This document shows positions 28,851 through 62,753 of a stretch of 64,000 bases of DNA, in pieces; the first letter of the stretch is position 1, and each line of letters begins with the position of its first letter. Both the position numbers and the translations under genes were made by a program. This DNA comes from Bolinopsis microptera. Taxonomy: Eukaryota; Ctenophora; Tentaculata; Lobata; Bolinopsidae. The notes beneath the pieces were generated by a model. The model had not been told where the DNA came from, searched no databases, and saw only the letters and a list, made by a program, of their open reading frames with translations. The stretch is taken from assembly GCF_026151205.1 (NCBI RefSeq), contig NC_087078.1, positions 7,828,675-7,892,674 on the forward strand, given 5' to 3'.

Positions 28851-29536
28851 TTGTCGCCGTGTCCGCCAGCCGTAGAGAAAACTAAATGAGCTTAGATTTA
28901 ATGTACGCTTGCAAAAACATAAAGGTGTTTTAATCAAACATTTTAAAGCTACCTTAGATACTGAAGAAGTGGTCCCACATAATTACAGTAGATCTTAGTA
29001 TGACAGCTATTTGACTCAGTTCTCTCAACTCTTTATATCCTTAGCTGGTGACGTAATTTAACGGCACGTAACAGATTTTAGTTAACCTTACTTCAACTCA
29101 ATTAATCATTCCAATGCTCCGGAGCATTTCATGGTTGGTCTCGATCTTGATGTGATCTATTCACAAATAAACACTGTAAGATGTTGCTCACGTGAACTAG
29201 CCTGATTGTCATTATGCCTGTTATCCCCTTTAAAACGGCTCAGTGGAGTCTGCCTGTAGAGGTGGGGGACATGAAAGGGTCTACATCTTGAATAGAGTGC
29301 CGGCGCGGACGACATTTTAATGGGTTGTTTCATAATCTCGAGCGAGTAAACACTTCTCCGGGCGTGTTTTTTGCGCGCACGACCTAAATCTTGTGGATTT
29401 AAAGATATTCTTATTCGCGGGTAGTCACAATTATGCGATAGGATTGTGAGCGTCAATCTCATTTTAACTGATTCCTCCTAATCCAATTATATGGTTGTTT
29501 TTGGTTTCCTAATCAGAATTATTTATTAGGATAGTC

Positions 29537-30722
29537 ATGGCAGAAACTGAGACCAAGGAGATTCCAGATAAACCGAGTATAGTGGTATGTGGGGACACGT
29601 TCAACATTCCAGCCAACAAAGATCTCACTGTTGGACCAGGCCTTGTTTTCCGGAACAATGCTATAACCTGCACGAAACCAGGAGTCATAAAATCTAACGA
29701 CAAATCTGTCTGGATCGACAGGAACAATCGGAGGTAAGTTTCGATTACTCGTCATCCTAATTTAGTCGTGTCTCAGATTTTTTGCAACGTGGAGTGTAAT
29801 TAGTTTGTTTTTTCTGCTTGTTTCCTCTACGTTACCCTAGGTATGTTCCAGTGCTGGAGGAACGAGTGGTTGGAATTATAATTGGCCGTGTAATGGACGA
29901 ATACCGGATTGATATAGGAGGAGCCCATGTAGCCATGATGAGCTCTATTGCGTTCGAAGGAGCAACTCAGCGAAATAAACCTGAACTAAAGGTATGTATT
30001 TAATATCACTGCTGTACACCACACTGTACTGCTTAACGCATCACGTCTGCTAATGCAAAACCTTTGAGAAAGTTTAGTTCATACAACAAGTACAATGTCA
30101 GTTTCCTTGAAGTCGCGACACTATTGTTAAAGCAACGGTAGTGTTTGTTAGTTTAGTGTACTGTAATCTTTTTGTTTAATATTGTCGTCCCTTCAGCCGG
30201 GTAATGTCGTGTTTGCTAGAGTGATCGCAGCTAATAAAGACGTGGAACCCGAGCTTGCGTGTGTCAACAAGAAAGGCAAAGCTAACGGTCTTCAGGTACT
30301 GTTAATTTTGTATATCATGCTGTATGAATCTTTATCAGTGTAGTGGTCCCTTGGGTTTTTCCGTGGTCTTAGAATAGCAGTAAATCTCAATTTACATCCA
30401 AATGATTATTGCATTTCCATGTTAAATATAAATTATAACAGTGGTCTTCTCACTGCTCTAGGTACTTGAAGGTGGTCACATAATCCAGTGCTCTCTGGGT
30501 CTCTGCAGAAAACTCCGTCAGCACAAATCACCCCTTACCCAACCCCTCCTAAACCACTTCAAATCATTCGAACTTTGTGTAGGGATGAACGGCAGGATTT
30601 GGGTCAGATCTGATACGAACAAACACACTGTTGCTATTTCCATATATTTGAAACAGTGCGAGCATCTGTCGGTTTCTGATGCGGTTATGTCGCTAAGGCA
30701 CACTGTCAAAGCTTTAGGATGA
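29537..30722 (+). CDS. EXOSC3: Exosome complex component RRP40
   Basis: Exons 29537-29733, 29841-29991, 30197-30295 and 30462-30722 join in frame to 235 residues. RRP40 is a cap subunit of the nuclear and cytoplasmic RNA exosome, which processes rRNA and degrades RNA 3'-to-5'. Visible are an N-terminal beta-barrel, an S1-like central domain (residues about 66-150, VVGIIIGRVMDEYRIDIGG and GNVVFARVIAANKD), and a C-terminal KH domain whose signature GMNGRIWV is the Rrp40-specific GxNG loop. The length is somewhat below the vertebrate form. The ATG follows an acceptor-like TTATTAG by 7 bases. It is the first of eight co-oriented translation-related genes. Confidence 0.92.
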
Positions 30723-31140
30723 TCATTTGTGAGGCTTTATGTTGCTCAGTCAATTTGAATCAATCACATGTAATATGAATCATGAAGTTGGTAAGAAATG
30801 AAGATATAGTGAAGCTGTGAAGATGACACCAGTTTGGACCGATCCATTCGATTATGATAAGTGAACGCTTGTGGTCGACTCGATGACTCTTGTTTATTTG
30901 ATTTTGAACTTTGCTGTTGACCATTCAGTCTTACGGAATCCGACCGAGGCATTTGATTCCAGCCAATATATGTCGTGTTATTTGTCCTTTGCCTTAAATT
31001 TCGAACCGTCTTGATAAGGTATTACTTTCGCTACTTATTCATTCAAAAATATGTTGTTCAGCATCAAATGCTTCTTTACATTACCATCTATTGAGTTCTA
31101 TTCGTGTCCCAGGATAATATAGATATCTCACTATAGGTGC

Positions 31141-34100
31141 ATGCTAACAGGCCTCATACGAATTGGGTTACGATCTGTTAACATCTCAACCAGATTAATC
31201 TGTTACAGTAGCAAGGCTTCAGCCCTACCCATGGACGAGTTAAAAGCAGCAGCAGCCCAGCAGGGGGCAATAGTTCGGAAACTCAAGGAGTCCAAAGCAT
31301 CTGCTGACGAACTAGCAGCAGCTATCTCCGAGCTCAAAATTAGAAAGTTAGCTCTGTCCAATGCGGAGAAAGCAATAGCCGCCACCAAAAAGCCAACAGT
31401 AGATCGTGCTAAATTCGAGAATCTCATGAAAAGAAGATTCTTCTACGGAGCTGCATTTTCTCTGTACGGTGGAGTTGCAGGTCTCTACGATCTCGGTCCT
31501 GCCGGGTGTGCTCTCAAAGCCAACATGGTGAACTTCTGGCGGAACCACTTTGTTGTGGAAGAGAACATGCTGGAGGTTGAGTGTACCATGTTGATGCCTG
31601 CAACAGTGTTGAAAGCGTCAGGCCACGTGGAGCGGTTTAGTGATATCATGGTGAAGGATGCTAAAACTGGGGATTGCTACCGGGCTGATCACCTGTTGGA
31701 GGCTCATTTGGAGAAAGCTCTGGAAGGAAAGAAGGTGACTGACGAGAAGAAGGAGGAAATGGGTGCTGTTTTGAGACAGATTGACAGTTTTGGTCTGAAC
31801 GAGTTAGGAGAGTTGATAAAGAAGTACGGATGTAAAGCACCAGTGACTAACAATGATCTCACTGATCCATCAGAGTTCAATCTCATGTTCGGAACCTCCA
31901 TTGGACCTTCTGGGCTTGTGAAGGGGTTCATGAGACCAGAAACTGCGCAGGTTAGGAAATGTAGTTATTATTATCTCTTTTCGTGATCACTAAAACTACC
32001 TTAGTAGGGTGTTGTAATGAAAAATAGATTTCGTATTTTACTAAAATAACAGTTTTACTTGAGTTCAGCTGTCATTATTTATTAATTCCATGCAACCAGG
32101 GAATATTTGTTAACTACAAGAGGTTACTGGAATACAATCAAGACAAGATACCATTCGCAGGGGCCCAAATCGGACAGTCGTTCAGAAACGAAATATCGCC
32201 CAGGTCTGGACTTCTCAGAGTCAGAGAATTCTGTCAGGTCAGTTTATTAAGTGAATTAATTTTAAGTTTTGAATAATTTGTTTTTTATTCGGTTTCATTA
32301 TGTACTCTGAGCTATTTAGAATTCCAAATCCTAAATTGGTGTCTCTCTCAGGCAGAAATCGAGCATTTTCTTGATCCGTTGGACAAATCTCATCCTAAAT
32401 TTAAGAATGTGAAGGATGTTAAGATTAAGTTTTATACCTGTGAGGCTCAAATGGCTGGAACTGACATGCAGCACATTACAGTCGGAGAGGCATTGGAAAA
32501 AGGTGTCCTTGAAAACGAAACTATGGGGTAAGTTCTCACAAAATTATGAATTTAACTAATGAAAGATAAATTAATTTGTTAACTCTAATAACTAAACCCT
32601 CAGCTAACATTAAACTCACTCTCTCGACAGGTATTTCATAGCCCGAATCCACCAGTACCTGTCAGAAGTTGGTATCCCCGATGAAAATCTCCGGTTCAGA
32701 CAGCATCTTGCGAAAGAGATGGCGCATTACGCGGCTGACTGTTGGGACGCTGAGTGTAAGACTACATACGGGTGGGTGGAGATAGTGGGGTGCGCTGACA
32801 GGAGCTGCTTCGATCTCAACGCTCACGCAAAGGTAAATTATGGCGCTCATGATTCTGTAACATGCTCGTTTTAATATAAAACCCTCCAAAGGTTCCATTT
32901 TATACCGTAGGGTATTTTGCAAAGTTTCTTTGGTTTTTGTCAGTTCCTAATTGTAGTCTTGTCCCCTTAGGCGACGTCCACGAAGCTAGTAGCCAAACAG
33001 ACCCTCGACACCCCCGTCACGAGGGAAGTAGTAGAAGTTGCTCTGAACAAAGCTGCTGTTGGTAAAGGGTTCAAGAAGGAGGCCGGTGGAGTCACCGCTG
33101 CTATCCACAACATGGAGGACGAGGACAAGTTGAAGATGAAGGAACAACTCCAGTCAGATAACTTTAAACTGGTGGTTGGTGATAAGTCTTACGAGATAAC
33201 CCCGGCCATGGTGACGAGTATAAGCACGGTTTCAAAGACGGAACATGTTCGGGAGTTCGTGCCGAGTGTTGTGGAACCTTCTTTTGGTATCGGAAGGATC
33301 CTCTACTGTATACTGGAGTGCAACTTCAAGGTACTATGATACACATCCTAGGCACCACATAAAGCAGTTTTCAAATGTTTAATGACTACCACGCCAAGAT
33401 TATTTTAGAAGTTTGATGATTGAACATTGTATATTAAACGGTGGTTATATATTATTTATATTCAGTAATGTCTGGCCTGACTGAGTCCTCCTTCTTAACC
33501 AACTTCTCTCACCAGGTACGAGAAAATGATGATAAGAGAACGTGGCTGAACCTGCCCCCTCTGATAGCACCCACCAAGTGCTCTGTCCTTCCCCTCAGTA
33601 ACTCTCCAGAGTTCATCCCTTACGTTGAGGACCTCAGTGCTGCACTCAGGAAACTGGGTATTCCTAACAAGGTATGTAGGGATGGGGTAGCGAGCTTGTT
33701 GTTAATATTATCTTATGTGAAGTGTAAACTGTAAACCCATTCAATGAAAGTAAAGCACTATTTATTCCGATTATTGCTGACATATCTAAGATGAGGTACG
33801 TTAAACCGCCCAATACTGCAAATTGATAGTTTTCAAACGTCTGCTCCCCCGTAGGTTGAAGATTCTTCTGGATCCATTGGACGGAGGTACGCTCGAACTG
33901 ACGAGCTTGGAATTCCTTTCGGTATCACTATTGATTTCGATACCATGAAAGAACAATCTGTAACAGTTAGAGATCGAAATAGCTGCAGTCAGGTAAAATA
34001 ATTTTACTTTTCATGTCTCATTCGAGTCGCTTCAGTTATGCAAAGTCGCTTCAGTTACCCAAAGAATACATAAGCCTGGGAAGCCTTGAATATATTCCTA

Positions 34101-34277
34101 CGTCGGAAATTTGAACTTGAATAACATATTACGAATCTTGATACCAATAATCCTCAGATTCGTGTCCCGGTATCAGATACACCCGACCTTATCAACAAAC
34201 TGTGCACTGAGCAGATGACATGGGGAGTTGCTAAAGAGAAGTACCCTGAGTTTATAGGACAGGAATCCAATAACTAA
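31141..34277 (+). CDS. GARS1: Glycyl-tRNA synthetase, dual mitochondrial/cytosolic
   Basis: Eight exons: 31141-31950, 32100-32237, 32352-32527, 32631-32832, 32971-33330, 33516-33671, 33855-33992 and 34158-34277. They give 699 residues, near the human length. It charges tRNA-Gly in cytosol and mitochondria. Residues 1-30 ([19 protein letters not shown]...) form a typical mitochondrial presequence. A second Met at residue 31 (31231) starts a WHEP domain (about 33-85). Then come the class II catalytic core with [17 protein letters not shown] (motif 2, with the catalytic Arg), [10 protein letters not shown] (motif 3) and the anticodon-binding domain from about residue 560, including [18 protein letters not shown]. 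The first ATG follows an acceptor-like CACTATAG by 4 bases. Polyadenylation signal AATAAA at about 34392. Confidence 0.95.
31204..31230 (+). promoter_or_regulatory. Possible internal trans-splice acceptor between the two GARS1 starts
   Basis: CTGTTACAG at about 31200-31208, preceded by a TAATCTG stretch, lies 22 bases before the second Met codon (31231). If used as an acceptor, the mRNA would lose the mitochondrial presequence and encode the cytosolic enzyme. Confidence 0.3.
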
Positions 34278-34391
34278 TCCTAGTTTAGGTTCACTAGTCA
34301 TCTTCAGTGATGTTCCTTTTATGCACATATTTCCTTGAGTTTATTCCTCTTTTATTTTACTTTTACTTCATAATTTGTAAAAGATCTCGCC

Positions 34392-34397
34392 AATAAA
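34392..34397 (+). terminator. Polyadenylation signal of GARS1
   Basis: Canonical AATAAA 115 bases after the stop codon, before the 3' flank leading to MRPS10. Confidence 0.55.
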
Positions 34398-34907
34398 ATT
34401 TACTATGCTTAACAATTTGTTTGCTAAAATTTGGCATGTACTCGGAAAATTTGCCACGATTTTGAGGATCCTATCTCAGCATAAGATTATCCTGAAATTA
34501 TCCTTGACTTTTAGGTGAAATGTATAAAGAAGAAATTGAATGTCACAGTATCATTAAAATATAAGACTGTTTGTTGAATTTCTGTAAAATTGTTTATTCA
34601 AACTTTAATTATGTCTGTAAATATTGTGTGATAAACGTTTTAGATTAAGATGGTTATTAGACAAATAATTTTATGCAATTAAGAGATAAAATTATTAGAT
34701 ACATATTCTATTTAAAGATTGATATGTTTTTGGGGACTTGTTGTTTAAGAATGTTATATGAAATGTATTGCCATATTGGCTTGGGGATATTACTAGTTTA
34801 TTTTCAAAATCTTCTTGTTTTACTGTTTACCTCCTTTCCTTAACCAAAAAACTTTCCTTCGTCTTCATTCATTTCAATAAAATACTAACCTGATGTATTC
34901 TCTAGCA

Positions 34908-36358
34908 ATGTTAAGACAGACACTCTCCAGACTGGGTGTTTGGACTTCAGTTACAGTTCCAGTTTTAGCTTCAGGAGCACTACCCACTCTTAGCTGTACT
35001 TGTCATCGGTATGTTGGCACTAAAGCAGGCAAAGCAAAGTTCGCTATGGACGTGGTAAGCTTGTTATGATAGTTTTACCTAATTTCTGGCCCCTTTTTAA
35101 GTCAATTATGTTTGAAACGTCTGAGAATAACTCGAGCACGATTTATTATATTTCACGTTTTGCCATTACAGGTGGAGTTTGACCCAAGTGAAATCAAAGC
35201 TAAGATTCCACCCCAAGAACCCTACACGGAAAGAGAAGCCGCTACAAGATCAGATTCTAAGTACGACCGAGTAAATCCTCACTTATTCGTAAAGCACAGA
35301 GAAAGTTTGGATCCGAGGCGCTACACGGCCGATGTCGAACAACTGGAAAAGTCTGCCCTGAGGGTAAGTTCTGGTGAATATTTAATACAATAATAGGGAT
35401 CTCGCTTATTATACCAAGGCCGGATCTGTCTGTGGTATCTCCATGGATCATAATAATTCTTAGTTACGTACGTTACAGCCAATAAATGTTCCATACTCTT
35501 CCCATTCCTTCTCTCTTAATACCACAACTAACTTTGAGTCCCCCAGCCGGAGATAGACCCAGCAGGGGAGCGGTATGTAAGCAGGCTGGTACTCTCCATG
35601 AAGGCCAGCTGTTACAGTACGCTGAGAAGTTACTTTATATACTCTCACTTCACTGCTGAGTGTCTTGATATCCAGTCTACCATGGAACCTGGCAAACTTG
35701 TCACAGGGTACGTGTGGTGTTTGTAGCTTTAACAAGAAATACATTAGGACGAAAATATGGGAATTGGTTGATTTCCAAGGTGATAATGATATCAGGATTT
35801 TCTATTGAAATTGTATGCTTGGCACATTTAGTTACAGTCATCCGTTACAGAGTGTACACAGTGAACAAGTCGCCAGTAGTACACGGTAAACACAAGGACC
35901 GGTTTAAAAGAGACCTGTGGAACCGGAAACTGATCCTACACGATATCTCCGGTACTACTGCTGATGTGTATCTTAGTTACGTTCAGAGGAACATACCCGC
36001 AGGTTGGAATTGTTTTTTATCTGTCGTTTTTTGTTGTTATTATGACCAATTGTTACAGTGGTTATAACAAATCGTTTCAATAGAAGGTTAAAATGCAGCT
36101 TGCAAATACAAGTCAATTTAATTGTGTTAAATTCAGTATTATAAATATTTGCATCGTCGATTCCAATAGCTAACAATACGCCTCCCTTCTGCAGGTGTCA
36201 CCATGGCAATAACAGAAGAACGGTTAACAGAAATACCCCTGGAGTTTGTCAAAAGTTTCTACTCTGAAACAAACGACCAAGTTAAACAGGAAGTCGGAAA
36301 TGAGTTTGACAGCTTAAGAAGTTTGGTCAATGACGATGGTTTCGAAGAACCCGGCTAA
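34908..36358 (+). CDS. MRPS10: Mitochondrial small ribosomal subunit protein uS10m
   Basis: Exons 34908-35054, 35172-35363, 35547-35707, 35851-36002 and 36195-36358 give 271 residues with matching phases. The protein belongs to the head of the mitoribosome small subunit. The N-terminal about 40 residues are presequence-like. The S10 fold lies at about residues 115-240. Its C-terminal part, ISGTTADVYLSYVQRNIPAG then VTMAITEERLTEIP, is the clearest uS10m signature. Exon 4 is anchored by the phase-correct acceptor TTACAG at 35850. The start lies 2 bases after an acceptor-like TTCTCTAG. The next gene, MRPL48, has the same fold. Confidence 0.85.
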
Positions 36359-36765
36359 GATCATCAATCGTCCCAAATTGCGAAAAGAATGTCTTGGTGA
36401 TGGTGCGATGTGTCAATGATATAAACCCTTATGACTTCAGAATTTGCAGATGTTCGAAATGTATGTACAAATGAACCTCATTTTATGGTTTGAGGAAGAG
36501 ATTCCATGTGAATGAATCTTATGTGAAAAACTGTTATGTTAATACCGATTACCCCTTTTTCAATTTCAACTGTTTAGTTTATGAGCTTGTAATATTGTTA
36601 ACATGTTTGATTATTTGATAATGGTTTTTGAAAGTCTCTGATATTCTCACTTCAAGTTTACAGTGATTCCAATGCATGATATTAAATGTTTCCGACAGTT
36701 TTAATAACGATTTTTGTTCTTATATTAATCTTCCTCTTTTAAACTCCTCTCTTTTCAATAGGACG

Positions 36766-37341
36766 ATGTTACGAAACCTAACCAAGCGAATGTGTCCCCT
36801 CACCCTGTCTCACTCCCGCTCCCTCTCCGATAGAACCGAGATAGCATACGAGACAAACTTTGATGCACCCTCACTCCGCTTAGCACTCCACTTCCACATC
36901 TCCGGTCATGACGACACCGCACTGGAGCGGTTCATAAAGCACACCTCCACCTACTGCAAACAGGTGGGGTACAATGTGGACGGCAGGGTGGCTCTCCCCA
37001 CCACTGTTCAGAAAATAGCAATCAAGAAACCGCCCAACAAGTTCTCCAGGCGACTAGACGAGACTATCTACCTGAAAACACACCGTCGGATTATCCGGAT
37101 TAGTAATGTTCCGGGAACGGAGGTGGATATTGTTCTGGATACTGTTAACAGGACGATACCTCCGGGAGCGAAGATGACGGTTCATGACGACAAGACTGAG
37201 CCGCTGTCAGAGGAGTTGTTGAGGTTGCTGAAAGGGGGGCAGAAAATGCAGAATGTTAATAAATTTACAGGTGTAAATCCTGTTTTACATAGATGGATTA
37301 ATGTTAACTTTGAATCCAAAATAAATGACCCGGTTGACTGA
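36766..37341 (+). CDS. MRPL48: Mitochondrial large ribosomal subunit protein mL48 (S10 fold)
   Basis: Single exon, 191 residues. After a presequence-like MLRNLTKRMCPLTLSHSR, an S10-type fold spans about residues 45-150: LALHFHISGHDDTALERF, VALPTTVQKIAI, IYLKTHRRIIRISNVPG and VNRTIPPGAKMTVH. The LPT segment and the xxTHxRxxxIS block fit mL48 better than uS10m. It is a metazoan mitoribosome large-subunit protein related in fold to uS10. The chosen ATG follows an acceptor-like TTCAATAG by 4 bases; the more upstream in-frame ATG at 36676 lies before that acceptor. Gap to MRPS10 is 407 bp. Confidence 0.82.
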   Translation: MLRNLTKRMCPLTLSHSRSLSDRTEIAYETNFDAPSLRLALHFHISGHDDTALERFIKHTSTYCKQVGYNVDGRVALPTTVQKIAIKKPPNKFSRRLDETIYLKTHRRIIRISNVPGTEVDIVLDTVNRTIPPGAKMTVHDDKTEPLSEELLRLLKGGQKMQNVNKFTGVNPVLHRWINVNFESKINDPVD

Positions 37342-37781
37342 ATAATGTCCTGTTCAAGGTCGTGAGATTGTACAATCGAATCTGTTTATGTTTGAAAGTG
37401 TGAAGATGTTGGGCTGTCCTGGGTACTTCTTCTGTGACCCTCCAGTATCCTGAATTGAACTCTGTTTATTCTTGGCCACCCTGTATATTTAATTAGCGAT
37501 CCTAATGATTTCGCTGTTTGTAAATTATTACTCTTTGTATTTTGATGTTATTTACTGATGTTGTTTCTGGTCCTTGTCAATGTACATTTTGAATTTTAAG
37601 TGCCCTAAATAACATACATTTTCAGGGTGTCAACCCATTTATTTGACTAGTCATATTCATAAACGATTTATTATTGCTTCTAAATTCCCCCGATTTGAGA
37701 ATCGGGTATCTAAAACTTCATTCCCTCATTTTGACGTTTTATTGTTAATTAATCCAAATGTTCTTATTTAGCCAAGAGACG

Positions 37782-38379
37782 ATGGTCAAATCAGTGCAAG
37801 TGTTTGGTCGCAAGAAGACCGCCACGGCAGTGGCATACACCAAAGAAGGAAATGGTATGATCAAAGTAAACGGAGTACCTATCGATCTTCTGGAACCTTC
37901 TGCCCTCAGATACAAAGTGTTGGAGCCCGTCCTACTTCTCGGAAAGAAGAGATTCGAGGGTGTCGACATCAGGATCAGAGTCCGAGGTTCGTCTTTCTTT
38001 CAAATTCCATCAAATAAATTATGTCTTGATTGAATGTCAGTATTGTTAAGAAACGGATTTTTGCACATATGTGATTGTGATCCATCGTAGTTTGTCATTA
38101 AAATGTTGGTTTTATCCTGGATCTCATTTCCGCTCATTTTAACCTATCTGTTCCCCAGGTGGTGGAGCAACTGCCCGAGTGTACGCTATCCGACAGTCCA
38201 TCTCTAAATCTCTCGTAGCTTACTACCAAAAGTTCGTGGACGAAACATCGAAGAAAGAGATCAAAGATATCCTTCTGAATTACGATAAGTCTATGTTGGT
38301 GGCCGATCCCAGAAGATGCGAACCCAAGAAATTCGGAGGTCCAGGTGCCCGTGCCAAATACCAGAAATCTTATCGTTAA
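37782..38379 (+). CDS. RPS16: 40S ribosomal protein uS9 (RPS16)
   Basis: Exons 37782-37986 and 38159-38379 give 141 residues. The protein is a small-subunit head component near the decoding site. [15 protein letters not shown] opens the fold, [20 protein letters not shown] spans the exon junction, and the conserved C-terminal tail ends [13 protein letters not shown], reaching toward the P-site tRNA. The ATG follows an acceptor-like TTATTTAG by 10 bases, so a native TOP-type 5' end would be replaced if trans-splicing occurs. Confidence 0.97.
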
Positions 38380-38618
38380 ATGTATTTATTTTTTAATTTT
38401 ATTATACGACCATCCACTTTGTCTCACTGAATCATTCGAATTAATGTTTCAAGGAATCTTGTAATCAATTTTGTACAATTTTTGGCAATATTTTTCATTC
38501 TCAATGCAGAATTCATTTTCAATGCAGAAAAATTCGTAACCACTTGTCTAATGTACTGCATAATTAATTTGACAGATTTGTTTCTTAAACTAACAAAGCA
38601 ACCTTCCTATAGCAAGTC

Positions 38619-40685
38619 ATGAGCAAAAGGCCACTGGAAAGCTCCGAATTAGAGCTGGCCTCCGAACTACCTCTCACCGCCCTGGAAACCTTGGACGCTC
38701 TGGACTCAGTGGAGCATTTCTCCTTGGAATCAGGCGATGATAGTGAAGACGAAGACTTTGACTTCGGGGAAAATGACTACCGTGAAGCCTTGCCCGGGGA
38801 GAAAATTCTAGTTCGACCTAACGATTACAATGACAGCGACTGTTCTTCCGACGAAGAGGAGATCAGAAACAGGATCGGCAACATTCCAATGGAATGGTAT
38901 GACGATTACGATCATATCGGATATGATATCCACGGAGAGAAAGTGGCTAAGACCCATAAGGAGGGAGACCAGTTGGATAAGCTTCTCGATAGGATGGATA
39001 ATCCTGACTATAGGCGAACTGTCCACAACAAACGTGAAGGAGAGGACATCGTTTTGGAGGATGACGACGTGGCTATAATTGAAAGAATTAGGAGTAACGC
39101 TTATCCAGATCTGGGATATGATCCTTATGAACCGTATGTTGACTTCTTCACCAACGAGAAGCAGTTGACCCCCCTCGTTGATACTCCAGAACCTAAGAGA
39201 AGATTCATACCCTCAAAGCACGAGCACAAGAAAGTAATGAAGATCATCAGAGCCATTAGAAACGGCTGGATCAAACCCAAGGATGACACTCCAAAGAAAC
39301 CAGTTTACTTTGATCTGTGGGCCAACAAAGAAGAACCTCAGAAACACAATCCAATGCACATCCCCGCTCCAAAACTAGCACTTCCCGGTAACGAGGAGTC
39401 TTACAATCCTCCAGCAGAGTACCTGCCAACCCAGGAGGAGAGGGACCAATGGGAGAATACTGACGAAGTGGATAGGACCCAAAACTTTTTACCTCAGAAA
39501 TATTCCTGCTTGCGTCATGTTCCTGCGTATCCTCAACTGATCAACGAGAAGTTTGATCGTTGTTTAGATCTCTACCTGTGTCCCAGAAAGATGAAGATGA
39601 AACTTAACATGAATCCAGATGACCTGTTGCCCAAACTTCCGAAACCCAAGGACCTCAAACCTTTCCCCTCGACCAAGGCAGTAAAATTCAGCGACCACGA
39701 AGGCCACGTTTACTCCATCGACTCCAACAAATCTGGCGAGTTCATTGTTTCTGGGGGAGAAGACAAGATGCTGAGAATCTGGGAGAGCTCGACTGGGCGG
39801 GTACTAAACAAGATAGCGTTACCAGACACCATCACCAGCGTGAAATGGAACAAGGTCCACAGCATGGTAGCGGCAGCTTGTGGTAACACTGTGTACCTCC
39901 TTAACCCTGGTTTAGGGGACAGAGTGGTGGTGGAGTCCACCAACAAACTTCTCCAGGGACTTACTGATATCAAAGAGTTGGATCACTGTCGGTGGTATCC
40001 GCTCGGTAATGATAAGGATGGGTTGAGGGCTAAACTTGTCCACAATCATGACATCAATAATATCACGTGGCATAACAACGGTAACTACCTGGCTGTCACC
40101 ATGAGAGACAGTCAGTCCTGTCCCGTTCTCATCCACAACGTCGCCAAAAACTCAAGTCAGAAACCCTTTAACAAATCAAAAGGTCAGATCCAACAAGTCG
40201 AGTTTCACCCCAGCAAACCGTTCTTCTACGTTCTATCCCAGCGATATGTCAGAGTTTATAACCTGGTTAAGCAAGCCATGGTTAGAAAGCTAATCTGCAG
40301 TGTAAAGTGGGCGTCCTGTATGGCTATTCATCCTAAGGGGGATAACCTCATTGTGGGTAGTTACGACAAGGCCCTGGTCTGGTTTGATATGGACTTGTCA
40401 GTGAAACCCTACAAAAGTTTACAGCAGCACAAGAAAGCTATCAGAGACGTTTCATTTCATCCCCGATATCCTCTGTACGCTTCAAGTTCAGATGATTGTT
40501 CAACTATTATAACCCACAGTATGGTTTATAATGACCTCGTTAAAAACCCGTTAGTAGTACCGGTGAAAGTGCTGAGAGGACACAAAGTTACTACTAAGTA
40601 TGGGGTGCTGTGCAATGTTTTCCATCCTCAGCAACCCTGGATTTATACCGGTGGTGCTGACGGTGATATTTGGCTTTTTGTGTGA
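38619..40685 (+). CDS. BOP1: Ribosome biogenesis protein BOP1, intronless
   Basis: 688 residues in one exon. BOP1 forms the PeBoW complex with PES1 and WDR12 and is needed for 27S/32S pre-rRNA processing and 60S maturation in the nucleolus. The N-terminus is acidic (about 36-82). The BOP1NT domain follows (about 100-345, with IPMEWYDDYDHIGYD, PYVDFFT and FDRCLDLYLCPRKMKM). The C-terminal beta-propeller starts near 365 (GHVYSIDSNKSGEFIVSGGE) and ends GGADGDIWLFV. The start follows an acceptor-like CTTCCTATAG by 6 bases. No introns, in contrast to its neighbours. A possible AATAAA lies near 41020. Confidence 0.96.
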   Translation: MSKRPLESSELELASELPLTALETLDALDSVEHFSLESGDDSEDEDFDFGENDYREALPGEKILVRPNDYNDSDCSSDEEEIRNRIGNIPMEWYDDYDHIGYDIHGEKVAKTHKEGDQLDKLLDRMDNPDYRRTVHNKREGEDIVLEDDDVAIIERIRSNAYPDLGYDPYEPYVDFFTNEKQLTPLVDTPEPKRRFIPSKHEHKKVMKIIRAIRNGWIKPKDDTPKKPVYFDLWANKEEPQKHNPMHIPAPKLALPGNEESYNPPAEYLPTQEERDQWENTDEVDRTQNFLPQKYSCLRHVPAYPQLINEKFDRCLDLYLCPRKMKMKLNMNPDDLLPKLPKPKDLKPFPSTKAVKFSDHEGHVYSIDSNKSGEFIVSGGEDKMLRIWESSTGRVLNKIALPDTITSVKWNKVHSMVAAACGNTVYLLNPGLGDRVVVESTNKLLQGLTDIKELDHCRWYPLGNDKDGLRAKLVHNHDINNITWHNNGNYLAVTMRDSQSCPVLIHNVAKNSSQKPFNKSKGQIQQVEFHPSKPFFYVLSQRYVRVYNLVKQAMVRKLICSVKWASCMAIHPKGDNLIVGSYDKALVWFDMDLSVKPYKSLQQHKKAIRDVSFHPRYPLYASSSDDCSTIITHSMVYNDLVKNPLVVPVKVLRGHKVTTKYGVLCNVFHPQQPWIYTGGADGDIWLFV

Positions 40686-41092
40686 GGGAGGTTTTAGTCG
40701 TTTAGGTCTGGTTTTAATATTTGATGTCCGTACTTTAAAGAATTCTTCAGTTATGGACATGGTACGTGATAAAAGATGACAGTGGTTGGGTAAATTATTC
40801 TTAGATTCTAGATGATGGTATGTTATGTTCGAAGAAAAGCGTGTAAACTTGACGTATCTTTTTATAATTTATTGAGATTTTTGCTTTTAACATACCACAC
40901 AATTATTATTACTGTCCTTGGAGAACATTACTATCAATTTAATTTCGTCTTCGTTTGATATGAGAGAAATTTTACGAAGATCATCAGAAAAAAAGCTAAC
41001 TATGAACATTTGTGTTCGAAATAAAAAATACCTTCAATGTCATGGAATTTTGTGTAAAGTTTGATATTATTTTAACTTTTCATGTCCTTAGC

Positions 41093-44000
41093 ATGAGATC
41101 TATTTCCCGTTTAGCTCGACTACAATCCAGATCCTCCTACCTTACTGTTCCCTCTCCTGTTGAAAACAGGATCTGTTACCAAGAAAACAGACTATGTTCC
41201 CTACAAAACACGACGGTATCACGTCCGCCTTATCGTTCATTTGTATCTGGGTTTTCTGGAAGTACGTCTATTCCGGAAGATGAACAGAAGTCTGTTAGAG
41301 TGGCAATCATAGGGTCACCAAATGTAGGTTTGTACTGTTAATATCTTGATTTAACTAGCACTAACATACTTTCTAATTCTTTCTTTGGTGACTTTTGTAC
41401 TCTTTCGTAAACTATGTTCTGCTGATTTTGGATTGGTGTCTAATAGTTGGTGATTTTTAACGAAGTTATCCCATTACATTTTACTCGTCTTATCAACTCT
41501 TCTCTCCCAGGAAAGTCAACACTGCTGAACTCCCTGATGCAGCAGTACATTTCCCCTGTCTCCAAACTCCGTAACACCACCATGGGGGAAGTACTCGGTG
41601 TTATCACCCAGGACGATACTCAGGTCGTCTTCGTCGATACACCAGGTTTGTTTTAGTCCTACACATAGTACTCCTAGCATGCACCGAGACATGGCAGATA
41701 ATGATACGTTTAAAGCATATTTAGCCGTAGTTTAATTTCAATTTTGTCTTTTTTAATTTTCTATTTTGTCTTTGCGTCCTTTGGCCTTGACCCCTAGTTA
41801 TAGTCTTGCTTCAGTAGGATACATACAACGTAAGCTATCACCAGCTAGGACCACTACTCCCGTTCTATTTACCTGTTGAAGCTCAGGTCTACTACCGGGT
41901 GAGTTCAAAACACGACACCAGAAGCCGTTAATGAAGGAGTACTACCACAAATCACTGACAACAATACAGGACTCCTTACTAGAGGCTGACGTGGCTCTCT
42001 TCATGTTTGATTGCTCCTTGTCCCTCTACAGACTGTTCATCACGGCGGATTTAGAGGATGTTATTGAGAGCATTCCTGATATTCCTAAAATACTGGTACT
42101 CAACAAGGTACACTTGTCATTACTTTTGTAAAATTATGAAACAGACAACGTTGAAGTCAATTTTTAAATAATTAACAGGGTCGGTAAAACCATTCATTTA
42201 GTTCCTTCAATTATCACTCAATACTATATTAATTCATTAATAGTAATAGTATTATTCAGAGAATACCCTAGATTTAACCATTCAGAAGCGCTAATCACTA
42301 CTGTTCGTGTAGTGACGATTGATTCTCTCAGATCGACAAAGCGCGAGAAGGAGAGAAGATTGATTGCATAGTGGAACAGCTCACAACCCCCAGACCCCCC
42401 TTTCTTGTTCCCGAAATAGCTATGAGATCTGATATCAACCCTTCCCTTCTTGGATTACAATACGAGGATGATTTCAGAGATGGCAGAGAATTTGATGAGG
42501 TAAGTATTTTCCAGTGTTAGAAAACTGAGATTTCTTGATCATCTACTCATACTTTAATGCTCTACTGATAGTATCACGCGAAGACTGTGTAACTGTAATA
42601 AGGCAATATTGAACATGGCTTGGAGTTTTCAGCGTGACAATTTTAAACTTTTCCCCATACTACCGTCTACCGAACTCTTTAGTTAAAAAGAGCTGGGTTT
42701 TCAGTAGGTAACTGTAAGCTGTTACCCGGGTAACTAAACTCTGTGTCTCACACAGATAGTGACACTGAGTGCTCTACAAGGTACACATGTCAACTACATA
42801 TGGTACACAATAAGACAGCTGGCCGTGCACCGTCCCTGGCAGTACGGTCCCGATGTTGTCTCTCCTGATGATATTGAGAGTGTTGTAACCACTATCGTCC
42901 GGGCTGAGGTCAGTTTTAGCTTATTTGTTTGTTTATTGGGTGTCTTTTTTTGGTGAACTAGATGCGTTCAAAATCTTTGGTATTTAGGTTGGCCAAACAT
43001 CTGATTTAACAATTTTATACGATAAGAAACTTTATTAGTAGTTTATTTAGACGGTTCCTTTTACCTTGACATCTTAGATTTTGAAGAAGGCAGGCTATCA
43101 TCTAGCGTACGATTTGGATCACAAGTTTATCGGGTACAAAGAAGAAGCAGATAAGCTGACCATCGAATTCGCCATTTTCAGAGTGAGTGTATTTCACTAT
43201 TGATACGAATTTTCCTCGCGATTAAACTAAAAACCCTAAAAACTCGTAGCGTTTAATGCATATATGGAATATGATACATATATTTAATTGAATACAATTT
43301 TTTATTTTGAAGTTAACACCGTTCTTTAAAGATCAAGTAATTGTATTATTGTAATCATTACAAAATTATCGATAATAAAAATAGTACATAGTATGTCACC
43401 TCTTATTGAGCATGCAACGAACTCATCGATCTCAAAACAAAAATAAAACTCAAATCTAGCAAGAGCCAAGTGTCTTTTTAGCGAAGAATAAATTCAGGCT
43501 CCTTAAAATGATTGAAAAAATTAAATCCGATTAAGCCGAATGATTGAACGGTTCGTGTCCCAGAAATGTTATCTTAACCTCAGTTTTAGCGCTATTAGGC
43601 ACCTCCATTACCATCTTTTCCAGCGACTCAAATAAAAATTCCCTATCGAATGGGAATCCCATGGGTCTCTTATCAGGGTAATCAGATCCTATCTTTCCAC
43701 AAAAAGCCACGCTGCCAGAGAGATGAGCATCAGGACTTACTGCATCCTCCTTCCAATCAGTCGCCAACACGTAAAGATCAGCACTCATTCCATCAGAGGT
43801 ACCCCGGGGGACTAGCAGGTTCCTGGGCCAGCCACATCCACATCGAGCCTGAGAGTCAGAGTTCTTCCTATCTCGTATATCCTGTAGAGTTAGGGTAGGA
43901 GGAAGGAGAACTGAGGATTGCTCAGATGATCTGGTGATAGTCTGTTCTGCCCCACTGTCAATCTCTGCCACGAACCTGTCCATCTCTACAAAATCGTTCC

Positions 44001-46699
44001 TTCTCTGGTCGAGGTCCTCAGCATATCTAATGGGAGCCAGGAACACTCTGAAAACGAGTGTAGCGTCCTCCTCTCTCGTATTGCAGACTTTAAAGTGGTA
44101 GGTGAAGGGGAGATGCTGCAGAGATGTTGTGCGAAGGACTTCCTCCTTGCGGTCTTTGTAGATAGTGTGTTCTTTTTCTATCATCCTGGTGAAAAGTTGG
44201 TCGCGAAGCTCTTCTTGGCATGGCCCTAATCCTGGATCAGGCTCACAGATAATAGAGACATCATCTACCTCTATCCCTCTCACCTTCAGATCTTCCTTTG
44301 TATAAGACAGAATGTTGCTAAACCGTCTGTATTTTTCAAATATAGTGTCAATGAACTTATGCCACCTGTAAAATACAGGGTCTCTGGCTGCTGTCTCCGT
44401 TGCGATCATTGCTCCAGGGTCTATGTTATACCTCCCATCAGGATCGTTCATTAAACTAATCATCACGTGACCGTTGTTGTGGAGGTTCCCGTAGAGCTCC
44501 TTGTTCGCTGAGCCAGTGCTCGCTTCCACGCAGCATCCTAGCTTGTCCATCGTCAATTGAACTCTGTTACCAGTAGGGTCCTCTAGATGATTTCTTGCTA
44601 TGGCTATATAGAGCCTCTCTTTGTTCGTGTCCATGTTACTCGCCAGAATGTGACGGGAACCTAACGTCACACTGTCAGGTATGCTCATGAATGAAGCCCT
44701 AAAGGAATAGTCCTCTAACTTTGGGTTGAAACCTTCAGGTAAAGGATCATCCCAGTGAATACCTGGTCCGTAAGGTTCAACAGGAGAGAGACCCACTGCT
44801 AGCCTTTCAAAGTTGTATCTTGCAAGCATCTGCTGGTGCATGTACGCGAACAGCTCTCCCTGCCTATCTTTTACCGGCTCAGCGAAGGGGTAGTAGACAT
44901 GCCAGTTGTAGTGGTGCTCGGAGAGTCCGGGGTCCTGTCTCCACCAATCCAGCTTGTTTTCTGGATCCAGAGTTGCTTTGCTACCAATAAGGGTTGCTGC
45001 GCTTCCGAGAAGGTTGTTTCCCCCGGTTAAGATCTACCAGATATTTTTGGTCCCATGGAAAAATTTTGTTCCTAGCCGAAATTATTGCCGGTCAAAGGTC
45101 AGCGCTCAGCGATTTTCAATCACGCGCCCTGAAAATCGAGTCTAAAAATCTATCTCCTCCTACATTTTTTGAGCAATCACCTTGAAACTTTCAGGATATG
45201 TTCTAAGGACCATTTAAAAACTTTTACTCTTTTTAGAATTTCGAGATAGGCCTTTAAAAAATTTTTATTCGATTTTGAAAATCTTAGACCTCGTTTTTTG
45301 ACGATTTTTTCAGGTCCAAGATTTTCAAAATCGAATAAAAAATTTTTAAAGGCCTATCTCGAAATTATAAAAAGAGTAAAAGTTTCTAAATGGTCCTTAG
45401 AACATATCCTGAAAGTTTCAAGGTGATTGCTCAAAAAATGTAGGAGGAGATAGATTTTTAGACTCGATTTTCAGGACGCGCGATTGAAAATCGCTCGCGC
45501 AATACAATTACACATGAGCGCTGACCTTTGAGATGGTCCTTGCAGAAGAAAGCTCGTGGGAGTGTTTGGGAAGGAGGAGGAAGAGTCATGTTCTTGGTGT
45601 CTTCATGTTTAAACAAGGCTATCCTGGTCAGATAGTCCACGTAGGCACTGGTAGGGTGGCGGTTCTTTAGATCAGAGAGAGCTTCTATCATCTCCGATAC
45701 GTCCAGTTCGGAGAGTTGGTGTGCTGTGGCGTGGGCTTTCTTCATATGCTTCTCAACGAAGACGGTGAATTGAGGAATGTGGCTCAGCTCCGTAAACTCA
45801 GCATTCCTGACTTCATTGCCCTTCACGAATATTTCATCGTCTTCCAGGAATACTTTGAGAAGTTCTCTGTTTAACTCTAGATCAGCTGTCTTTGAACAGG
45901 TGCAGTCTGACATCTTCTGTAACGGTATTCCCATCTACTAAAGAGGGAGAGTTTTTTAATTCTGCAGCTAGAAATGTTACTATATATTATTATTAAGTTT
46001 AGTAATAATTTCAATATTGCTTAGTTTGATTTTCTTATATGCGGAAGAAAAAAAATCATACCTTAGAATAACAATAACAATATGTGAATAAAAATACTGT
46101 CTTGGTGTCCTTTACGCTAGTATATATACTGATCTGGGGTGTGTTTGGGTATGACAAATGTTTAAGCTCACTGATAAAAGTTCTTCAGAATGAAAACACG
46201 GATTAGGGCACAAAATGAACTCCTAGTTTACAATAGTTTTCATAGGTTGTTGTTAATTCCTCATAATCGCACAGTTTACTAACCGTTCATTAAGTACCAA
46301 ATGACTTTAAGTTCCTGAATATTTCTGACTACACTGCATCATTTAACTACGTTATCTTGGCCCTATCATTTTCTGTTACTTCTAAATCATCTTTCATCAG
46401 AACTCCCGCCCTAAATGGCGACGTTATACTGAGTTACTTACAAAACCTACTTATTGTCAAGTTTCATTGTATTTTAATGTTAAGTAACGCTTATATTCCA
46501 TTTTCAGAAGCAGCCAGTCTTTAAGACACAAGAAAACAAAGAAGAATCCATAAAGTACATCCAGGAATTGCTTAGCACCAGATTTGGATGTCCGGTTGAC
46601 TTTCGGCTCATTGATAGAAGGGTTTCGCAACAAAAATCTCAGCTTTTAGATATAATAGACATGTCACAAGAACCTGATATTGAAGTTTTTGAGGAGTGA
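41093..46699 (+). CDS. ERAL1: Mitochondrial Era-like GTPase (12S rRNA chaperone)
   Basis: Exons 41093-41327, 41511-41645, 41887-42107, 42332-42499, 42756-42908, 43078-43182 and 46508-46699 join in frame to 402 residues. ERAL1 binds mitochondrial small-subunit rRNA during mitoribosome assembly. A serine/arginine-rich presequence leads into the G domain: GSPNVGKST (G1, split by intron 1), DTPGLL (G3) and LVLNKID (G4, split by intron 3). The C-terminal KH-like domain (about residues 280-390) ends FGCPVDFRLIDRRV. Where Era proteins carry a glycine-rich GxxG RNA-binding loop, this one reads TQENKEES, so the canonical loop is lost. The last intron is 3.3 kb and holds a hemocyanin gene on the opposite strand; both splice sites are phase 0. 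Confidence 0.85.
43531..45934 (-). CDS. Arthropod-type hemocyanin / prophenoloxidase, nested in the ERAL1 intron
   Basis: The N-terminal exon (45934 to about 45530) carries a helical domain starting MGIPLQKMSDCTC, without a signal peptide, as in arthropod prophenoloxidases. The main exon (about 45015-43531) has the type-3 copper centre: CuA HHYNWH (about 44899-44916) and HQQ, CuB HNNGH and RWHKF, so all six histidine ligands are present. The C-terminal domain includes CGCGWPRNLLVPRGT, a family hallmark, and ends GHEPFNHSA. The enzyme would oxidise phenols or bind oxygen; phenoloxidase activity is the likelier role outside arthropods. A 436-bp foldback element separates the exons. GT donors at about 45530 or 45508 and AG acceptors at about 45014-44990 could remove it, but the pairing is unresolved; otherwise the gene is broken. 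The start follows an acceptor-like CTCTTTAG. Confidence 0.88.
45095..45530. mobile_element. Foldback element inside the hemocyanin gene
   Basis: Two arms of about 205 bp are near-perfect inverted copies meeting near 45300, with outer ends TCAAAGGTCAGCGCT / AGCGCTGACCTTTGA. The interior is AT-rich and non-coding. A relative lies at 13486-13640. No clear target duplication is visible. Because the outer end supplies AAAG|GTCAGC in the gene's orientation, the element may provide its own splice donor. Confidence 0.85.
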
Positions 46700-47002
46700 T
46701 TTTTGCGTTTTTTGAAAACTGCTTTTTTAATGATTTTTAATGGAACCTGCTCGATTTTGATCCAGTTTTGCGAGAGTCCACTAACTACGAAAAACTTTTT
46801 GAAATGTGTAAATATATTGTTGTGTTCATGTTATGTATGTTGATTGAATGATGAAATTCGAAAGTATACTTATCTGCGACAGAAAATGTTTCAGTCAAAC
46901 TTAAATATGGCGGAATTTTTCAAAATCTGCCAAATCTGCTTAACCATTCAAATTATTTGTCAAATAACAAAATTTAATTAAACATTCTCAGTGTTTAGCA
47001 GC

Positions 47003-47723
47003 ATGGCCTCGTACCAATCTCTTGGTCCTATCAAGGAGCACATATACAAGGAGAAGCACACCGGAGGAGTCACCCTCAAGGATGTTGAGTCACATATGTG
47101 GGTCAAAGAATTCGCCGCATTCCTTAAGAAATCAGGAAAACTGACAATTCCCAAGTGGACTGATATCGTAAAGACTGCCACTTTCAAAGAGCTCCCACCT
47201 AAGGTAAATTATGACATATGTAATATTTAACTTCCTGTTTTCAAACTCATTTTATTTTATATTCTAATTTCTAATTTCTGAGACAGGATCATAGTAACAA
47301 TTGTTACACTGTACTCCTAGCCCACATTGTTGTATAGAATCATTATTTTGTTACTATCATTGGTTTGTAACTCCAGTAAATTCTCAGGACAATGACTGGT
47401 ATTACATTCGATCAGCAGCCCTATTGAGAAGAGTATATCTTAGACAGGGTGTAGGAACCGGTTCCTTGAGGAAAATCTACGGAGGACGAATCAACAGAGG
47501 ATCAGCCCCCAGTCACCACAAAAACGCATCAGCTTCCGTCATCAGACACGCTCTTAAAGGGCTCGTAGAGATGAAACTGATCGCCAATCATCCCGATGGT
47601 GGAAGAATGATCACAAGTGCCGGACGACGGGACGCCGATCGTATCGCCTCTCAAGTTATGAGCGCCTCACAAGTTGCTGTTGAGGAAGCAGAGGAGGAAG
47701 TTGCCATTGTCGCTGAGGAATAA
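47003..47723 (+). CDS. RPS19: 40S ribosomal protein eS19
   Basis: Exons 47003-47203 and 47388-47723 give 178 residues, longer than the roughly 145 of the vertebrate protein. eS19 is needed for 18S rRNA 3'-end maturation and sits in the 40S head. The core starts [20 protein letters not shown] and includes [36 protein letters not shown] and [20 protein letters not shown]. The extra length is a 22-residue N-terminal lead ([19 protein letters not shown]...) and an acidic C-terminal tail ([14 protein letters not shown]). The ATG follows two possible acceptors (CTCAG and TTTAG) within 15 bases. Last member of the co-oriented translation gene block, 303 bp after ERAL1. Confidence 0.95.
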
Positions 47724-48030
47724 TATGTGGATTTTTATTTATGAGTTTTAAAAAGAATAATTGTTTAATTTGGAACTTCGAAAATCTCTCAAATTCTAGA
47801 AATCACTTTGATGAAGATCGACCTAACATTATCAATTATCAAGTCAAATTACAAAATGTAGAAAACGTAAAATCCCAACAATGAACCATTGTCCAGAGTG
47901 CAGGCCAACCCGTTTGCCGTTGGGATAGTAGCGTATACAGTACAGCGTATCTTGGATACATGATGTGCGTCTATTCGTAAGACTAGAAAATAAGCTCTTA
48001 AATATAACCCGTGATTAGATTCGAACCACT
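47724..48030. other. RPS19 3' flank
   Basis: Nothing recognisable beyond probable 3' UTR. The motif TTCGAACC near 48017 resembles a tRNA T-loop, but no arms pair around it. Confidence 0.35.

Positions 48031-52623: not shown

Positions 52624-62753
<10,130 letters not shown>

What the first reader, a model, noticed from the sequence alone, without database searches (positions are those of the whole stretch)
29537..47723. Candidate trans-spliced operon of eight translation genes
EXOSC3, GARS1, MRPS10, MRPL48, RPS16, BOP1, ERAL1 and RPS19 are all on + with no recognised gene of another function on that strand. Gaps from stop to next ATG are 418, 630, 407, 440, 239, 407 and 303 bp. All act in translation, ribosome assembly or RNA maturation across the cytosolic, nucleolar and mitochondrial compartments. 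Co-orientation, short gaps, functional coherence and an acceptor before each ATG are what a polycistronic, spliced-leader-resolved unit looks like. Mixing cytosolic and mitochondrial ribosomal proteins in one unit would couple the two translation systems. Order and gaps are seen; the operon is inference.
Basis: partly seen in the sequence, partly recalled or inferred. Interest (0 to 1): 0.9.

Follow-up and report, generated by a model that had tools for sequence, protein, structure and literature searches.

The report
Ctenophore translation-gene cluster, candidate operon
Eight protein-making genes sit head to tail in what looks like a comb jelly genome, and a gene fossil shows that one of them gets the shared RNA leader that lets other animals cut one long message into many; whether these eight share one message is likely but unproven.

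Summary
The genome (264.65 Mb) fits the ctenophore Bolinopsis microptera (inferred). The trans-splicing half is now well supported. The genome holds a spliced-leader (SL) RNA gene array on contig C3. The leader core has 1705 near-copies, reversed control 0. Of three intronless RPS16 copies on C11, two carry 17 nt of leader joined at the predicted RPS16 acceptor: a fossil of a trans-spliced mRNA. All 8 ATGs have an AG within 12 nt, against 43% of 2262 other ATGs. The operon half stays inference: no polycistronic RNA, TSS or synteny data could be had. Against it: ctenophore SL use is general, 3 of 7 gaps lack a canonical poly(A) signal, and 6 of 7 gaps exceed 250 bp. For it: a proven Hydra operon has a gap of about 440 bp. 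Polycistronic transcription of most of the run: about 0.6.

The parts
29537..30722 (+). EXOSC3 (exosome RRP40), 4 exons, 235 aa; first gene of the run
31141..34277 (+). GARS1 (glycyl-tRNA synthetase), 8 exons, 699 aa; leader-like N-terminus from ATG 31141 and a second in-frame ATG at 31231
34908..36358 (+). MRPS10 (uS10m), 5 exons
36766..37341 (+). MRPL48 (mL48), single exon, 191 aa
37782..38379 (+). RPS16 (uS9), 2 exons; SL trans-splicing shown by a genomic fossil
38619..40685 (+). BOP1, single exon, 688 aa
41093..46699 (+). ERAL1 (mitochondrial Era GTPase), 7 exons, last intron 3325 bp
47003..47723 (+). RPS19 (eS19), 2 exons; last gene of the run
37770..37772 (+). RPS16 trans-splice acceptor AG and first exonic base 37772; the junction found in two C11 fossils
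29528..29530 (+). predicted SL acceptor of EXOSC3 (first exonic base 29530)
31135..31137 (+). predicted SL acceptor of GARS1, long form (a second candidate with first base 31223 lies before ATG 31231)
34904..34906 (+). predicted SL acceptor of MRPS10
36760..36762 (+). predicted SL acceptor of MRPL48
38611..38613 (+). predicted SL acceptor of BOP1
41090..41092 (+). predicted SL acceptor of ERAL1
46997..46999 (+). predicted SL acceptor of RPS19
43531..45934 (-). hemocyanin/phenoloxidase-like gene nested antisense in the last ERAL1 intron (not part of the proposed unit)
54507..54538 (+). exact copy of the 32-nt SL exon core, followed by a sequence that recurs after other SL copies rather than by GT; a relic, not an SL RNA gene

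Best explanation
This is a compact run of eight housekeeping genes for translation and RNA maturation in a ctenophore, most likely Bolinopsis microptera, whose mRNAs receive the genome's spliced leader. Shown: RPS16 mRNA was SL trans-spliced 10 nt upstream of its ATG, because a retrocopy preserves the joint; and the genome holds an SL RNA gene array able to supply the leader. Strongly suggested: the other seven genes have the same acceptor layout. Inferred: most or all of the run is transcribed from a promoter upstream of EXOSC3 into a polycistronic precursor; 3'-end formation frees each message and trans-splicing gives each downstream one its cap and leader. The likely use is joint, growth-linked supply of parts for cytosolic and mitochondrial ribosomes.
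For: Order, strand and gaps confirmed. SL core: 1705 copies with up to 3 mismatches, reversed control 0. SL RNA array on C3, mostly 591-bp spacing: 35 copies with GT listed between 13511056 and 13533428. Its unit has leader, GTAAG donor, hairpin, Sm-like ATCTTTTGG and hairpin (fold z -2.99). RPS16 intronless copies on C11: 2 of 3 carry ATAACAAATAATTTGAG joined at the RPS16 acceptor, intron removed. Acceptor AG within 12 nt of 8 of 8 ATGs, against 43% of 2262 controls. The leader resembles the published ctenophore SL ending AATTTGAG (by eye; PMC8527503 passages). Three other synthetase loci, seen as 10-kb stretches, show no such run. A tested Hydra operon has about 440 bp between stop and ATG and no promoter there (PMC3273482 passages). 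In Oikopleura most ribosomal-protein genes lie in operons (PMC6389100 passages).
Against: No RNA evidence of any transcript crossing a gap. Trans-splicing in ctenophores is general (leader on 56% of Hormiphora Iso-Seq reads), so it does not imply an operon. Acceptors also precede the ATGs of two - strand genes here. Canonical AATAAA/ATTAAA is absent from 3 of 7 gaps (EXOSC3, MRPL48, RPS16), and in the ERAL1-RPS19 gap the only one lies about 22 nt before the acceptor. Splice donors are not clearly depleted in the gaps (2 seen, 4.0 expected). Only 1 of 7 gaps is under the 250 bp used to call chaetognath operons. The direct SL fossil covers 1 of 8 genes: a search with 29400-43180 found only RPS16 copies, and 46500-47900 found only itself.
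Confidence: 0.6

Rival explanations
1. A co-oriented housekeeping cluster without an operon: each gene has its own short promoter in its gap, and each pre-mRNA is separately SL trans-spliced.
For: General use of the SL in ctenophores; acceptors before genes on the other strand; gaps of 239-630 bp leave room for a compact promoter in most cases; CpG observed/expected is 0.93-1.15 in three gaps, like the 1.05 upstream of EXOSC3, though 0.42-0.78 in the other four.
Against: A strand run of eight with a shared function and gaps this short is hard to explain without a shared constraint; the RPS16-BOP1 gap is only 239 bp and must also hold the RPS16 3' UTR.
Confidence: 0.33
2. A mixed unit: two or three shorter operons with internal promoters, for example a break in the 630-bp GARS1-MRPS10 gap or after the 3.3-kb ERAL1 intron with its antisense gene.
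For: The GARS1-MRPS10 gap is the longest and holds three canonical poly(A) signals; Oikopleura operons have internal promoters (passages).
Against: No positive sign of a promoter was found; this is a sub-case of the best explanation and its probability is counted inside it.
Confidence: 0.35
3. A chance neighbourhood: eight genes that happen to lie on one strand.
For: Gene-dense patches do occur by chance; strand alone would agree 1 time in 128 (arithmetic, no call).
Against: Shared function of all eight, short gaps, and flanks with few predicted coding pieces. Three other synthetase genes, seen in 10-kb stretches, lie without such neighbours.
Confidence: 0.05

Closest known systems
Ctenophore SL trans-splicing (Hormiphora californensis, Mnemiopsis leidyi; Schultz et al. 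2021, PMC8527503, passages read)
   Same: Leader of about 42-44 nt with a similar core CAACACTACT...AATTTGAG (compared by eye; the 5' end here is inferred from conservation); hundreds of genomic copies of the leader
   Different: Here the SL RNA gene array with donor and Sm-like site is told apart from leader relics, and one host gene's junction is read from a fossil. The words operon and polycistron have 0 occurrences in that paper's text.
Hydra RFC140-flp operon (PMC3273482, passages read)
   Same: Co-oriented genes, gap of about 440 bp (worked out from the restriction sites described), SL acceptor before the downstream gene
   Different: Two genes only, tested with reporter constructs. Here eight genes of related function and no experiment.
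Oikopleura dioica operons (PMC6389100, passages read)
   Same: Single promoter upstream, SL acceptors before each gene; most ribosomal-protein genes lie in operons
   Different: Much more compact genome, with a 60-bp distance cut-off for operon calls (SLIDR/SLOPPR passage)
Chaetognath Paraspadella gotoi operons (PMC12460157, passages read)
   Same: The longest operon holds nine genes, including ribosomal-protein genes; no operon-specific SL
   Different: Called by under 250 bp between gene models plus SL reads; here 6 of 7 stop-to-ATG gaps are longer and there are no reads

Membership tests
SL-resolved eukaryotic operon | Two or more adjacent genes on one strand | tested here: met
   8 of 8 on +
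SL-resolved eukaryotic operon | Short intercistronic distance | tested here: inconclusive
   239-630 bp stop to ATG; near the proven Hydra case but mostly above the cut-offs used for tunicates and chaetognaths
SL-resolved eukaryotic operon | An SL donor RNA encoded in the genome | tested here: met
   C3 array with GT donor, Sm-like site and hairpins
SL-resolved eukaryotic operon | SL acceptor at downstream genes | tested here: met
   Acceptor AG within 12 nt of 8 of 8 ATGs; junction seen directly for RPS16 only
SL-resolved eukaryotic operon | Polycistronic precursor RNA from one promoter | not testable with these tools
   No transcript data for this genome could be read
SL-resolved eukaryotic operon | Canonical poly(A) signal in each gap | tested here: not met
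   AATAAA/ATTAAA in 4 of 7 gaps. Not a strict requirement in all SL systems (recalled), but it counts against a plain nematode-like layout
Ctenophore-type spliced leader | Leader ending AATTTGAG before a GT donor | tested here: met
Bolinopsis microptera | Genome of 265 Mb, largest chromosome 26.2 Mb, GC 38.5% | tested here: inconclusive
   G000 is 264.65 Mb; C1 reaches at least 26.04 Mb; contig count 232 against 346 scaffolds; whole-genome GC was not measured and no named record was compared

The most novel reading that the evidence does not exclude
An eight-gene polycistronic unit that couples cytosolic ribosome, nucleolar assembly, exosome and mitochondrial ribosome genes in a ctenophore. 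It would be the first operon reported in the phylum that may be sister to all other animals, and GARS1 may gain mitochondrial and cytosolic forms by choice of SL acceptor.
Probability: 0.4. Interest if true: 0.8.

Novelty: new member of a known kind. Interest (0 to 1): 0.6.

Why it matters
[quoted passage not shown] My searches for ctenophore or Mnemiopsis with operon, polycistron or spliced leader (the last listed 25 of 26) showed no paper whose title or start of abstract reports one; I opened six of the listed papers, and only at matched passages. A translation-gene operon in this phylum would bear on whether operons follow trans-splicing again and again, and on how the two ribosome systems are kept in step. 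The genome-only proof of trans-splicing for a named gene (leader joined to an intronless copy) can be applied to any animal genome.

Tried and rejected
Hypothesis that an ENA relative of MRPL48 starts inside the leader (194 aa against 191): rejected on reading the sequence; the extra residues are C-terminal. Synteny through equal contig lengths of relatives: BOP1 and MRPL48 relatives lie on contigs of different lengths; no conclusion. Retrocopies crossing a gap, as fossils of polycistronic RNA: none found (the tool scores only best candidates, and one search did not list the window itself). Chaetognath origin: considered for genome size and operons, set aside because the leader resembles the ctenophore one. 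An SL donor gene in the window: AATTTGAGGT has no exact match there, and 3 matches with one mismatch against 8.5 expected. Reading every leader copy as an SL RNA gene: rejected, since 28 of the 30 copies that brought in L038-L067 are not followed by GT, and of 12 copies followed by GT only L080 has the array's downstream sequence. Hammerhead ribozymes after leader relics: suspected by eye, not supported by Rfam (no match; only sub-threshold matches to other families). Rfam SmY match to the SL RNA: below gathering score (26 against 39 bits), so not claimed. Coding density of 30 other 3-kb loci as a gene-density control: mean 0.26, median 0.17, with transposon frames likely included, not used. 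The first acceptor test scored windows without an AG as -99; its P value is not used and one search replaces it.
Full report
What is there. Spliced models translate without internal stops (exon table, where GARS1 and MRPS10 end one base too far; their stops end at 34277 and 36358). Pfam for all eight and PDB comparisons for four support the names (BOP1). The stop-to-ATG gaps are 418, 630, 407, 440, 239, 407 and 303 bp, exactly as reported. Of 22 introns in the run, 21 are 103-256 bp; the exception is the last ERAL1 intron of 3325 bp, which holds a hemocyanin-like gene on the - strand. Outside the run, predicted coding pieces are sparse: an RRM gene on - near 11.7-13.2 kb, a reverse-transcriptase-like piece near 22 kb that is below its Pfam cut-off, and a kinase on + from 52624 with kilobase introns. 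I name the kinase by eye as S6K/MSK-like; its first 34 residues gave no Pfam match.

Which organism. The window lies in a genome of 264,652,675 bases in 232 contigs. A published table gives Bolinopsis microptera as 265 Mb in 346 scaffolds, largest chromosome 26.2 Mb (PMC11797021 passages), and contig C1 here reaches at least 26.04 Mb. BOP1 has a 99% match in an unnamed JGI contig, then unnamed relatives at 67-77%, then a cnidarian at 54%. The leader found below is of ctenophore type. The species name is inference.

Is there a spliced leader. The published Hormiphora leader ends AATTTGAG (passages). AATTTGAGGT occurs 1690 times here against 900 for the reversed pattern, and 3 of the first 30 places carry a longer leader-like sequence. 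Its 32-nt core occurs 1705 times with up to three mismatches, reversed control 0. Of the 30 copies that brought in L038-L067, 28 are followed by varied sequence and not by GT, as expected of relics of trans-spliced RNAs or of elements that picked the leader up. The 37-nt leader with a GT behind it has 215 exact copies. Only the first places of these are listed, and they include a tandem array on C3, mostly at 591-bp spacing, with 35 copies between 13511056 and 13533428. The unit holds GTTTTAATACTTTCAACACTACTATATAACAAATAATTTGAG, the donor GTAAGA, a hairpin, the Sm-like ATCTTTTGG and a second hairpin; the 5' end of the leader is inferred from conservation. It folds better than shuffles (z -2.99). 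I take this array as the SL RNA genes; Rfam gives only a sub-threshold SmY match.

Direct evidence at this locus. A search with window 29400-43180 found three intronless RPS16 copies on C11 at 92-99% identity, with the intron removed. In 2 of the 3 the 5' end reads ATAACAAATAATTTGAG followed by CCGAGAGACGATGG. The window reads cttatttag, then CCAAGAGACGATGG. So the last 17 nt of the leader are joined at the predicted acceptor, 10 nt before the ATG. The third copy matches only from 37783, the second base of the ATG, onward. None of the three matches reaches the RPS16 stop codon, so they say nothing about its 3' end. The copies stand in tandem and probably descend from one insertion. This shows that RPS16 mRNA has been SL trans-spliced in this lineage. 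No such copy was found for the other genes (best candidates only, and the stretch 43181-46499 was not searched).

Acceptors. A matrix built from the 22 cis introns was applied to the 40, 20 and 12 nt before each ATG. Within 12 nt, all 8 genes have an AG, against 43% of 2262 other ATGs on both strands; mean score 4.3 against -3.4, 5e-6 by resampling; within 40 nt the contrast is weaker (5.2 against -0.3, 2e-4). The proven RPS16 site has the lowest score of the eight (0.9). Two genes on the - strand also have close acceptors (scores 6.0 and 5.2, 6 and 3 nt from the ATG) and the kinase does not. Strong splice donors in the gaps are 2 against 4.0 expected, not a clear depletion. Canonical poly(A) signals are present in 4 of 7 gaps.

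How unusual. The PF00587 search gave three loci (it missed GARS1 in the window, so it is incomplete). Read as 10-kb stretches, these loci, which I name by eye as SARS, TARS and EPRS, show no tight run of same-strand genes; neighbours further off were not seen. One further ribosomal locus does show a small version: MRPS9 followed 662 bp downstream on the same strand by an adrenodoxin-like ferredoxin, both with an acceptor, by eye, just before the ATG. So 1 of 4 other translation loci looked at has a tight same-strand neighbour.

Operon or not. For: shared strand and function, short gaps, proven trans-splicing of an internal gene, a shortest gap of 239 bp, and a tested Hydra operon with a gap of about 440 bp and no promoter in it (passages; the distance follows from the restriction sites described there). 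In Oikopleura most ribosomal-protein genes sit in operons (passages), and in a chaetognath the longest operon of nine genes includes ribosomal-protein genes (passages). Against: no RNA, general SL use, missing poly(A) signals, gaps above the tighter cut-offs, no synteny test. I put polycistronic transcription of most of the run at 0.6 and one unit of all eight at about 0.4.

Novelty. SL operons are known in several phyla. A 2021 paper says none had been reported in ctenophores (passage). My searches showed none in titles or starts of abstracts, but they cover open-licence papers only, and the founding ctenophore paper (Derelle 2010) was not held. So this is a new candidate member of a known kind in a phylum where it would be a first.

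Noticed in passing
window 43531-45934 (-): Hemocyanin/phenoloxidase-like gene nested antisense in the last ERAL1 intron. Between its two coding blocks lies a near-perfect inverted repeat (arms 45108-45291 and 45312-45495, 97%), read by eye as an element inside its intron.
   Followed up: partly
window 31137 and 31223: GARS1 has a candidate acceptor before each of two in-frame ATGs (31141 with a leader-like N-terminus, 31231), so alternative trans-splicing could give mitochondrial and cytosolic enzymes.
   Followed up: partly
genome-wide; loci L038-L067; window 54507-54538: About 1700 leader-exon copies; 28 of the 30 looked at lack a GT donor; several share recurring downstream sequences and some stand as closely spaced divergent pairs.
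   Followed up: partly
L004 (C2, - strand): MRPS9 and an adrenodoxin-like ferredoxin gene in the same direction, 662 bp apart, with acceptors (by eye) just before both ATGs: a second small candidate unit.
   Followed up: partly
L087 (C3:13516900-13518400): SL RNA gene unit of 591 bp; its part behind the donor resembles nematode SmY RNA weakly (26 bits, below the gathering score).
   Followed up: no
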